Assembly: GCF_000219875.1 (NCBI RefSeq)
Contig: NC_017167.1
Coordinates: forward strand, 848,765 to 912,764
Reading direction: 5' to 3'
Length of the DNA: 64,000 nt
Source: Alicyclobacillus acidocaldarius subsp. acidocaldarius Tc-4-1
GTDB lineage: Bacteria > Bacillota > Bacilli > Alicyclobacillales > Alicyclobacillaceae
Part shown: one piece after another, positions 14,767 through 19,938 of the stretch
Position numbering within the stretch: the first letter of the stretch is position 1
Layout of the letters: each line of letters begins with the position of its first letter
Program-made: the position numbers and the translations under genes
The notes under the pieces: generated by a model
The model's input: the letters and a program-made list of their open reading frames with translations, nothing else
Databases searched by the model: none
What the model was told of the DNA's origin: nothing

Positions 14767-14795
14767 TTGGCTGACGTAAGAGAAGCGGCTACAAT
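14767..14795 (+). promoter_or_regulatory. Sigma-A type promoter of mpsC
   Basis: TTGGCT (14767-14772) and TACAAT (14790-14795) are separated by exactly 17 bp. The predicted transcript starts near 14802, which rules out the upstream TTG at 14767 as a start codon and supports ATG 14833. Confidence 0.7.
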
Positions 14796-14832
14796 AGAGT
14801 CAGAGGAGCGAGACGGCCGGGGGCGATGGGGA

Positions 14833-15246
14833 ATGCCGAAAAGTCGCGAACAGGCGTTTAACGAGATCGTTCGCAGGGTGCGAAAGGAGTGCTTCGGCAA
14901 GGGACCGGAGCGGATCCACACGGTGTTCGTCGATAACATGGCCATCTCCGTGCTGCAAGGTAATCTGACGCCGACGGAAAAGTTCATCAGCCGAACGCCC
15001 GAAGGGGCCGAGATGGTGCGCTTGGCGCGGACGAGCATGATTCAGGAGCTGTACAAGCGGAAGGTCCCGGAGGGTCTGGAAGAGGTGGCGGGCTCGAAGT
15101 TTCTATACCTGTTTTCCGACTTCAAGGTGGAGGAGGACATGGGGGTTTCGGTCTTCATTTTTGAGCGCCCCATTCCAAAAGAGCCCCTTCCGGACGGATT
15201 CATCTGCGGCAAACAGGCGAATCAAGCGCAAGAATCCGCAGAATGA
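14833..15246 (+). CDS. MpsC family protein (DUF2294)
   Basis: A 137-residue soluble protein of the DUF2294 family, named MpsC after a component of a staphylococcal membrane-potential generating system. Visible family features are the N-terminal helix (EQAFNEIVRRVRKECFGKGP), the segment HTVFVDNMAISVLQGNLTPTEKF and the C-terminal SDFKVEEDMGVSVFIFE. In many Bacillota this family sits next to formate or bicarbonate uptake genes, as here, but its biochemical role is unclear. ATG 14833 is chosen from the promoter position, with GGGGG upstream. A separate promoter follows before the formate channel. Confidence 0.82.
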   Translation: MPKSREQAFNEIVRRVRKECFGKGPERIHTVFVDNMAISVLQGNLTPTEKFISRTPEGAEMVRLARTSMIQELYKRKVPEGLEEVAGSKFLYLFSDFKVEEDMGVSVFIFERPIPKEPLPDGFICGKQANQAQESAE

Positions 15247-15252
15247 GTTGTA

Positions 15253-15280
15253 TTCGGATTCACTTCGAACGTGCTATAAT
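15253..15280 (+). promoter_or_regulatory. Extended -10 promoter of the formate leader RNA
   Basis: TGCTATAAT gives a consensus TATAAT (15275-15280) with the TGn extension. The -35 region is weak (TTCGGA at 15253-15258, 16 bp spacing). The predicted start lies near 15287, directly before the first base of the structured leader. Confidence 0.7.
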
Positions 15281-15287
15281 GTAAGTC

Positions 15288-15423
15288 CGTGGCGGGTGCA
15301 TTCGCGTGAGTGGGCGCGCTACGAAACCATTGGCTCGGCGCTTGAATGGTTGGCCTGTAGGTTCTGCAGGCGAACACATCGGCACAAGTTGACCGCAACA
15401 GGCGGCAATTTGTGTCTTTTTTT
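15288..15423 (+). ncRNA. Structured leader RNA with terminator/antiterminator upstream of the formate genes (candidate riboswitch)
   Basis: Read as RNA: hairpin 1 at 15288-15323 has a 7-bp base (CGTGGCG/CGCTACG, one G-U), an internal loop GGTG/GGCG and a 5-bp tip (CATTC/GAGTG) closed by GCGT. Hairpin 2 pairs AACCATT (15325-15331) with AATGGTT (15345-15351). Hairpin 3 pairs CCTGTAG (15354-15360) with CTGCAGG (15364-15370). A terminator follows at 15383-15423. GCCTGT (15353-15358) can instead pair with ACAGGC (15398-15403), with TTG/CAA extending the helix, which destroys both hairpin 3 and the terminator. Mutually exclusive pairing of this kind is typical of riboswitches. It matches no riboswitch consensus I can recall, and no leader ORF with a ribosome site was found. 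The span without a gene is 15247-15546. Confidence 0.6.
15383..15423 (+). terminator. Intrinsic terminator in the formate leader
   Basis: CACAAGTTG/CAATTTGTG and CCGC/GCGG form one nearly continuous stem around loop AACAG, with one unpaired A. TCTTTTTTT follows at once. It lies about 120 bp before the channel gene start and about 100 nt after the promoter. Confidence 0.8.
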
Positions 15424-15546
15424 GTGCGCGCAGCGGATAGGTCATGATGGTTTTCGTTTTAGGTATGAAGCTCGCCGCGCTGCACAAGGTAAGGTTGGGC
15501 ACGATGTGAACGAGAAGAGCGCTGAGGAGAAAAGGGTGAGAGTCGA

Positions 15547-16338
15547 ATGAGCAACGGGTTCTTGAGTCCAGCGGAAATTGCGCAACTGGCAGTGGAGGTC
15601 GGGGAAAAGAAGTCGAAGGAAGCATGGTGGAAGCTGCTCATTCTCGGCATTCTGGCGGGCGCGTTCATCGCACTGGGGTTCCTCGTCGACATCCGGGTGA
15701 CGGCCAGCCTGCCGGACAGCCTGGCGTCCATCAAGAGTCTGATAGGCGGCGCGGTATTTCCTGTCGGCCTCATGCTGGTAGTCATCGCGGGTGGCGAACT
15801 TTTGACCGGCAACATGATGACGGTGCCCATTGCCGTGCACGCGGGGCGCGCGAGCATCGGCGGTCTCGTGTACAACTGGTTCTGGGTGCTCGTGGGCAAT
15901 CTCCTCGGTTCGCTGTTCGTCGCGGGCGCGTTTGGCGTCGGCGCGCACCTGCTCACGGCGGATCCGTTCAAGGCGACGGTGATTGCCATCGCGACGGCCA
16001 AAGCGAAGCTCGCGTTTGGGCCGACCATTCTCTCAGCCATTGGGTGTAACTGGTTGGTCTGCCTCGCGGTCTGGATGGCGTATGGTGCCAAGGACATCGT
16101 GGGCAAGATCTTCGCCATCTGGTTCCCCATCATGGCGTTTGTGGCCATTGGCTTCCAGCACGTCGTGGCCAACATGTTCGTGCTCCCGGCAGGTCTGTGG
16201 GTCGGCGCCGACTACTCGTGGGGCAAAATCATCGAGGAATGGTGCGGTGCGTTCATCGGCAACGCCATCGGCGGCTGGATTTTCACCGCGCTTGCGTATT
16301 ACCTCGTCTACCTGACGAAGTCTCGGCGCGAGGCTTGA
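15547..16338 (+). CDS. Formate/nitrite transporter family channel
   Basis: 263 residues with six predicted membrane helices and the FNT signatures: GGELLTGNMM at the first re-entrant loop, NWLVCLAVW at the second, and the conserved pore His in FQHVVANMF. FNT channels are pentameric and move formate, nitrite or hydrosulfide. The formate dehydrogenase directly downstream makes formate the most likely substrate, as for YrhG beside YrhE in B. subtilis; this is inference from context. The gene starts downstream of the leader RNA and is followed by fdhA after about 115 bp. Confidence 0.9.
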   Translation: MSNGFLSPAEIAQLAVEVGEKKSKEAWWKLLILGILAGAFIALGFLVDIRVTASLPDSLASIKSLIGGAVFPVGLMLVVIAGGELLTGNMMTVPIAVHAGRASIGGLVYNWFWVLVGNLLGSLFVAGAFGVGAHLLTADPFKATVIAIATAKAKLAFGPTILSAIGCNWLVCLAVWMAYGAKDIVGKIFAIWFPIMAFVAIGFQHVVANMFVLPAGLWVGADYSWGKIIEEWCGAFIGNAIGGWIFTALAYYLVYLTKSRREA

Positions 16339-19440: not shown

Positions 19441-19938
19441 GTGGCGGAACCGATTCAGGTCATTCAGCGCCGGGAGGAGACGCTCGAGGAGCGGCGCCAA
19501 CGCGTCCTCGAGCGCCTGGCGGACGAGGTGGTGCACGAGGAGCAGGCGGCGGAGCGTTTGATTCGACTCGTGGCGCTGGCCGAGGAGAAAGGGCTTCTGC
19601 CGATGCTCACTGCGCTTCTTGAACGCGGAGACCGGATTCTGGCGCACGTCGTGGATCTGCTGGCTCGCGATGAGTACTCCTCTGCGCTGCAGAACGCCAT
19701 CGGCTTGGCTCAGGCGCTCGGGAAATTTGATCCAAGTCTGCTAGCCAGGCTCGTGGACGCTGTCGCAGGTGGGCTCGCGGACGCAAAAGAGGCGACATCC
19801 GCTGACGGGAAGCCGCTCGGCGTGTTCGAACTGCTTGCGCTGCTGAAGGATCCGAATGTATCGTATGCGCTGAGGTTCCTTCTGCGCTTTTTGTCCGGAA
19901 TGGGCAAGGCTCTTCAGTCGCAAGGCTCCTCAGACTGA
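19441..19938 (+). CDS. DUF1641 protein, YrhD/YjgD-like formate dehydrogenase partner
   Basis: 165 residues, mostly helical, beginning with a GTG three bases after the fdhA stop; GGAGGG in the end of fdhA serves as ribosome site. The C-terminal part (SADGKPLGVFELLALLKDP) carries the DUF1641 signature. Members almost always follow this type of formate dehydrogenase (YrhE-YrhD, YjgC-YjgD). The three-base gap predicts fixed stoichiometry, so a small structural subunit or assembly factor is likely. There is no signal peptide or membrane helix. Its own activity is unknown. Confidence 0.88.
   Translation: MAEPIQVIQRREETLEERRQRVLERLADEVVHEEQAAERLIRLVALAEEKGLLPMLTALLERGDRILAHVVDLLARDEYSSALQNAIGLAQALGKFDPSLLARLVDAVAGGLADAKEATSADGKPLGVFELLALLKDPNVSYALRFLLRFLSGMGKALQSQGSSD

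What the first reader, a model, noticed from the sequence alone, without database searches (positions are those of the whole stretch)
15288..15423. Candidate new riboswitch or attenuator controlling formate uptake and oxidation
Directly after an extended -10 promoter there are three consecutive hairpins, one with a purine-rich internal loop GGTG/GGCG, then a strong terminator. The segment GCCTGT (15353-15358) can leave hairpin 3 and pair with ACAGGC (15398-15403) in the terminator. No leader ORF was found, so a ligand or protein sensor is more likely than ribosome control. The downstream genes are a formate channel and a molybdenum/tungsten formate dehydrogenase, so formate, a one-carbon folate, molybdopterin or a metal could be the signal.
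Basis: partly seen in the sequence, partly recalled or inferred. Interest (0 to 1): 0.8.

Follow-up and report, generated by a model that had tools for sequence, protein, structure and literature searches.

The report
Twin-hairpin RNA switch for formate genes
A conserved RNA made of two copies of one hairpin plus a transcription stop signal sits in front of formate-handling genes in many Bacillus-like bacteria; it looks like an undescribed genetic switch, possibly worked by a small protein encoded next door.

Summary
In detail: promoter, three hairpins and a terminator at 15272-15423, folding better than all 200 shuffles (z -5.4). Rfam 15 gives no plausible match. Custom covariance models find it in 49 of 398 sampled Bacilli genomes, 22 of 145 genera (one judged chance), including the Bacillus subtilis group; covariation is very strong. 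Of 116 matches, 52 precede formate dehydrogenase and 46 a formate channel; exceptions include monocarboxylate carriers and FdhD. New here: hairpins 1 and 3 are two copies of one module (UGG-N6-NRYA-loop-UGYN-N6-CUA) in identical register, and in most relatives the second copy can extend into the terminator's 5' arm (not better than shuffles in the window's own group). This is the layout of a protein-dependent antiterminator such as ANTAR, without ANTAR loops. The best candidate protein is the adjacent DUF2294/MpsC gene: its linked subtype occurs in 57 of 398 genomes and all 57 yield a leader, a few only weakly. RNA family: very secure; formate signal: likely; DUF2294 role: untested.

The parts
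15272..15280 (+). extended -10 promoter element TGCTATAAT
   Evidence: sequence; TGNTATNAT in 9 of 9 close leaders
15289..15322 (+). P1, first copy of the hairpin module (UGG-N6-CAUU-loop-AGUG-N6-CUA)
15325..15351 (+). P2, variable hairpin, not conserved; overlaps the 5' strand of the base of P3
15346..15379 (+). P3, second copy of the module (UGG-N6-UGUA-loop-UGCA-N6-C-a-CA, one bulged base); possible outward extension 15340-15383 into the terminator
   Evidence: extension, not better than shuffles in this group
15381..15423 (+). intrinsic terminator, stem 15381-15416 and T run 15417-15423
15547..16338 (+). formate/nitrite transporter (FNT) gene
   Evidence: PF01226
16453..19437 (+). formate dehydrogenase alpha subunit gene
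19441..19938 (+). DUF1641 gene
14767..15246 (+). DUF2294/MpsC-family gene, candidate trans-acting partner
   Evidence: PF10057; co-occurrence

Best explanation
The segment is the 5' leader of a formate-channel/formate-dehydrogenase operon and a member of a transcription-attenuator family that I find in no library searched. SHOWN by sequence: the leader folds into P1, P3 and an intrinsic terminator; P1 and P3 are two copies of one hairpin module; in most relatives P3 can extend into bases the terminator needs. INFERRED: by default the terminator forms and stops transcription. When formate (or a correlate such as weak-acid stress) rises, a trans-acting protein binds the two hairpins together, stabilises P3 and keeps the terminator from forming, switching on formate uptake and oxidation. 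The best candidate protein is the DUF2294/MpsC-family product of the neighbouring gene (YrhF in B. subtilis; that name is recalled). By step: conserved cis-acting RNA 0.98; transcription attenuation 0.85; formate as the signal 0.75; protein rather than direct ligand 0.7; DUF2294 as that protein 0.45.
For: Covariation: 92.5% of cells paired against 69.0% shuffled and at most 50.4% slid (44 sequences); 92.7% against 64.1% (113 sequences). Module repeat: G.U in the UGG/CUA step in 56 of 62 P1 and 58 of 70 P3; U.G or C-G beside the closing pair in 60 of 62 and 69 of 70; P1/P3 composition cosine 0.74 and 0.67 in register, at most 0.20 at other shifts. P3 extension uses at least two terminator bases in 66 of 70 leaders, mean energy -16.2 against -11.4 shuffled. 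Targets: FdhA 52, FNT 46 of 116; also MFS carriers, FdhD and a formamidase/MFS/FdhD cluster. Linked DUF2294 subtype in 57 of 398 genomes, leader in 57 of 57 (48, 7, 2). B. subtilis evidence: 139-nt 'new sRNA or yrhE leader region' (PMC3574147, passages); fdhD, yjgCD and yrhEFG induced together by benzoate and low pH (PMC2788229, passages).
Against: In the window's own group the P3 extension is not better than shuffles (L002, L007; likewise L027, L113 and the minus-strand leader of L110). P1 was not recovered in the alignment for 8 of 70 leaders; re-reading showed a copy further upstream in L060 and L033 but a degenerate or unclear P1 in others. The last two linked-subtype genomes (23.6 and 26.6 bits, 21.5 kb searched) score below chance matches of whole-genome searches (29.9 bits in control G044, 30.9 in G242). 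Linkage alone explains part of the DUF2294 association. The predicted DUF2294 fold gives no sign of RNA binding. No termination, binding or induction data exist for this leader.
Confidence: 0.6

Rival explanations
1. A true riboswitch: the RNA itself binds formate, a one-carbon folate or another small molecule and switches the terminator without protein.
For: Leader of aptamer size with a terminator; the targets share a metabolite theme; conserved sequence inside P1 and P3.
Against: The conserved bases are almost all in two simple copies of one hairpin, with loops of 5-6 bases in 45 of 62 P1 and 54 of 70 P3; I see no multi-branched core with conserved unpaired bases. Formate is very small and I recall no formate aptamer. 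No match to a known class at the thresholds used.
Confidence: 0.25
2. Protein-dependent antitermination by a factor other than DUF2294 that is encoded elsewhere (for example an unlinked RNA-binding protein).
For: The twin-hairpin layout says protein but not which one; DUF2294 lies next to most leaders for reasons that could be enzymatic; S. aureus mpsC deletion had no growth phenotype (PMC6689103, passages).
Against: Linked DUF2294 subtype and leader coincide in 57 of 57 genomes, also where one leader copy is far from the gene (G217, G097, G184, G308, G401).
Confidence: 0.25
3. The leader is mainly a stand-alone small RNA ended by its terminator, not a cis-acting switch.
For: The Hfq study lists it as 'New sRNA or yrhE leader region' (PMC3574147, passages); it has its own promoter and a strong terminator.
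Against: 98 of 116 matches lie upstream of FdhA or FNT on the same strand, within the distances printed, and some genomes hold two copies before two divergent operons.
Confidence: 0.05

Closest known systems
ANTAR-target RNAs (EutV, NasR, AmiR leaders)
   Same: Two tandem hairpins with shared conserved elements upstream of an intrinsic terminator, the second able to exclude the terminator; metabolite-related regulon (PMC3369931, passages).
   Different: Here 13-bp modules instead of 3-bp stems; A1/G4 hexaloops in 1 of 62 P1 and 0 of 70 P3; no ANTAR domain found in the window's genome, though the control genomes did not ring either.
B. subtilis yrhE leader / ncr2184 (ncr60) transcripts
   Same: Most likely the same RNA in B. 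subtilis: listed as 'New sRNA or yrhE leader region', 139 nt, between yrhF and yrhE, and an sRNA candidate between yrzI and yrhG (PMC3574147, passages). A computational riboswitch screen also lists a 200-nt window beside yrhE (PMC4448311, passage).
   Different: In the passages seen there was no structure, family, regulon or mechanism for it; the equation with my matches rests on gene order in L073, not on coordinates.
Known riboswitches near one-carbon and molybdenum metabolism (ZTP, THF, Moco; names recalled)
   Same: Related metabolism, terminator control.
   Different: No such match at E up to 10 in the window leader, up to 5 in seven Alicyclobacillus-type loci or up to 3 in seven further loci.

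Membership tests
ANTAR-target RNA | two tandem hairpins before an intrinsic terminator, one excluding it | tested here: met
   tandem modules; at least two shared bases with the terminator in 66 of 70 leaders, but no gain over shuffles in the window's own group
ANTAR-target RNA | hexanucleotide loops with A at position 1 and G at position 4 in both hairpins | tested here: not met
   1 of 62 P1, 0 of 70 P3
ANTAR-target RNA | ANTAR-domain protein in the genome | tested here: inconclusive
   no PF03861 match in the window's genome, but 0 of 14 control genomes rang
Any RNA family of Rfam 15 | covariance-model match at the family's gathering score | tested here: not met
   0 matches in the window; no leader match at relaxed E-values in the window or in the 14 relatives' loci given
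Riboswitch (direct metabolite binding) | ligand-dependent structural or termination change of the naked RNA | not testable with these tools
   needs in-line probing or in vitro termination
Transcription attenuator (generic) | intrinsic terminator between promoter and start codon, conserved across relatives | tested here: met
   terminator helices 97.2% and 90.9% paired over 113 sequences
Transcription attenuator (generic) | regulated read-through | not testable with these tools
   needs reporter or Term-seq data

The most novel reading that the evidence does not exclude
The linked DUF2294/MpsC-family proteins (YrhF type) are a new family of RNA-binding antiterminators that sense formate or weak-acid load and bind two copies of one 13-bp hairpin: a regulatory system parallel to ANTAR, spread over many Bacilli and overlooked in B. 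subtilis.
Probability: 0.4. Interest if true: 0.86.

Novelty: new variant of a known kind. Interest (0 to 1): 0.74.

Why it matters
It would give an RNA family with over 100 examples a clear regulon, explain how formate use is switched on in B. subtilis and relatives (regulator listed as unknown in the table passage of PMC2788229), and suggest a function for a protein family of unclear role (mpsC deletion showed no growth phenotype in S. aureus: PMC6689103, passages). A formate-responsive switch would also be a useful sensor part for one-carbon biotechnology. The key steps can be tested in B. subtilis 168.

Full report
What was checked. The sequence 15272-15423 carries an extended -10 (TGCTATAAT), hairpins and a terminator as described; the leader folds at -66.4 kcal/mol, below all 200 dinucleotide shuffles (z -5.37). 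Downstream lie an FNT channel, formate dehydrogenase alpha and DUF1641; upstream a DUF2294/MpsC gene. Rfam 15 gives nothing for the window at gathering scores and only an implausible partial match outside the leader at E up to 10.

Conservation. DNA search of 41 family genomes finds the leader in 9, the window's own included (a tenth match is a 23-base stretch in G030); in three of them (L007-L009) only 15289-15422 matches while the flanks have diverged.

Family. Model R1 (15 sequences) matched 24 of 41 family genomes at E up to 1 (one at 0.84 is doubtful) and, among 57 loci, records of the Bacillus subtilis group, Cytobacillus and Paenibacillus. Model R2 (44 sequences with my structure) matched 49 of 398 genomes sampled from the class, 22 of 145 genera (one, G242, I hold to be chance), and 4 of 398 sampled from the phylum, all Bacilli. 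R2 over 95 loci gave 116 matches at E up to 1. Covariation: 92.5% of cells paired against 69.0% in shuffles and at most 50.4% slid, score 0.681 against 0.246, for 44 sequences; 92.7% against 64.1%, 0.699 against 0.224, for 113 distinct sequences (there the count of pairs with changes on both sides, 31, was reached by 7 of 500 shuffles). The alignments were fitted to related structures, which leans the counts upward, but the margin is large.

Targets. By tblastn with window and Bacillus references, the first recognised gene downstream is FdhA in 52, FNT in 46, DUF2294 in 1, none in 15 and the locus end in 2 of 116. Many loci were fetched through FNT, so the FNT share is biased; the class-wide genome search is not. 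The 18 others: MFS carriers in five (L156, L158, L139, L143, L144), of which L156 and L139 were tested and fit SfMCT (L-lactate transporter) over its cut-off, with matches below cut-off to oxalate/formate antiporters; an unclassified membrane protein in four (L106, L110, L111, L112); FdhD in two (L146, and L163 whose leader match is weak at E 0.69; Pfam); a Gly_transporter-domain protein in one (L160); unassigned or doubtful in six. Further cases: Gly_transporter again in G097 (L179) and PsiE in G217 (L193); in G110 the order DUF2294, acetamidase/formamidase, weak leader, MFS, FdhD. Formate is the theme most of these genes share; the Gly_transporter, PsiE and unclassified membrane proteins are unexplained.

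The twin module. Reading the alignment I saw that P1 and P3 are the same hairpin twice: U-G-G, six bases, N-R-Y-A, a loop mostly of 5-6 bases, U-G-Y-N, six bases, C-U-A. Over 70 non-redundant leaders (P1 extracted in 62): the UGG/CUA step has a G.U in 56 of 62 P1 and 58 of 70 P3; the pair next to the closing pair is U.G or C-G in 60 of 62 and 69 of 70; the closing pair is A-U in 43 of 62 P1 (U-A in 11) and 68 of 70 P3; the second loop base is G in 40 of 62 and 59 of 70. Position-wise composition of P1 and P3 agrees in register (cosine 0.74 for the 5' arms, 0.67 for the 3' arms) and at most 0.20 at shifts of 1 to 5. In several Alicyclobacillaceae the base of P3 has a bulged base (window: AUGGU with AC-A-CAU). 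Among leaders where P1 was not aligned, a copy is visible further upstream in L060 and L033, while in others it looks degenerate.

Switching. If P3 is held formed, sequence just upstream pairs with bases of the terminator's 5' arm: at least two such pairs in 66 of 70 leaders, mean energy -16.2 against -11.4 when the upstream part is shuffled, z below -1 in 57. The mean number of terminator bases used is 4.1 against 3.0 shuffled, so energy is the stronger signal. For the window's own group (L002, L007) there is no gain over shuffles; there the competition could rest on P2 against P3 or on protein bound beside the terminator (inference). Two similar hairpins, the second excluding a terminator, is how ANTAR proteins work (PMC3369931, passages), but the A1/G4 hexaloops of ANTAR targets are absent.

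Candidate factor. PF10057 occurs in all 49 leader-positive genomes and in 175 of the 349 others. A profile of DUF2294 proteins from leader loci (A6, 23 rows, one of them, L053, not of the adjacent type) splits the family: 57 of 398 genomes score 191 bits or more, the next best 160.9. Of these 57, 48 had a leader, 7 more with laxer filters, and the last two when only the DUF2294 neighbourhood was searched (23.6 and 26.6 bits). Among 341 genomes without the linked type, one search gave one match (G242, judged chance); of 14 of them searched with lax filters one passed E 0.01 (G044, 29.9 bits, judged chance). So the weakest of the 57 rest on position as well as score. As most leaders sit beside DUF2294, linkage alone explains part of the association. 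More telling are second leaders far from the gene: 2.4 Mb away in G217, 1.0 Mb in G097, another contig in G184 and G308, 17 kb in G401; each of these genomes also has a leader near DUF2294. AlphaFold2 gives a confident small alpha-beta fold (mean pLDDT 88.2) with only weak neighbours, TRAPP subunits among them; nothing shows RNA binding. In S. aureus an mpsC deletion grew normally (PMC6689103, passages).

Literature. No paper in the held library has the phrase 'formate riboswitch', none has riboswitch, 'formate dehydrogenase' and Alicyclobacillus together, and 'DUF2294' appears in one paper, on a fungus (listing). Six papers hold formate, 'riboswitch candidate' and 'formate dehydrogenase' (listing only; not opened). 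In B. subtilis the RNA was probably seen: 'New sRNA or yrhE leader region', 139 nt, ratio 170, the highest in the table passage shown (PMC3574147, passages), and a riboswitch screen lists a window beside yrhE (PMC4448311, passage). The genes fdhD, yjgCD and yrhEFG are induced together by benzoate and low pH, with the regulator, as I read the table passage, unknown (PMC2788229, passages). The equation of yrhF with DUF2294 and yrhG with FNT rests on gene order in L073, these passages and recall. The absences hold only for this open-access library and Rfam 15.

Verdict. A real, widespread attenuator family for formate genes, built from two copies of one hairpin and not found in the libraries searched. 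The kind (terminator/antiterminator control) is known; the RNA motif and its probable protein partner appear not to be. The DUF2294 role is a testable hypothesis, not a result.

Noticed in passing
window 15248-15262: A conserved stretch TTGNATTCGNNTTCA lies upstream of the -10 in all nine close leaders, at a position that does not fit a normal -35; it may be an activator site.
   Followed up: no
window about 15422-15490: Between the terminator and the FNT start there is a further inverted repeat (TTGTGCGCGCAGCGG ... CCGCGCTGCACAA); its outer parts recur in some close relatives by eye.
   Followed up: no
G000:C1:735905-736231 (L118): The window's genome has a second DUF2294/MpsC gene, of the type not tied to leaders.
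   Followed up: partly
L160 and L179: In two genomes (G184, G097) a leader precedes a Gly_transporter-domain membrane protein gene away from the formate dehydrogenase locus; perhaps a carboxylate channel.
   Followed up: partly
L193: In G217 a leader precedes a PsiE-family membrane protein gene, 2.4 Mb from DUF2294.
   Followed up: partly
L106, L110, L111, L112: A leader precedes a roughly 200-residue membrane protein gene with no family match over cut-off, possibly a formate channel of a new type.
   Followed up: partly
L160 1958-2014 (+): Bacillaceae-1 RNA (RF01690) above its gathering score, unrelated to the finding.
   Followed up: no
L010 1501-1523: An exact 23-base match to the window's terminator end and following bases in G030, outside any leader.
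   Followed up: no
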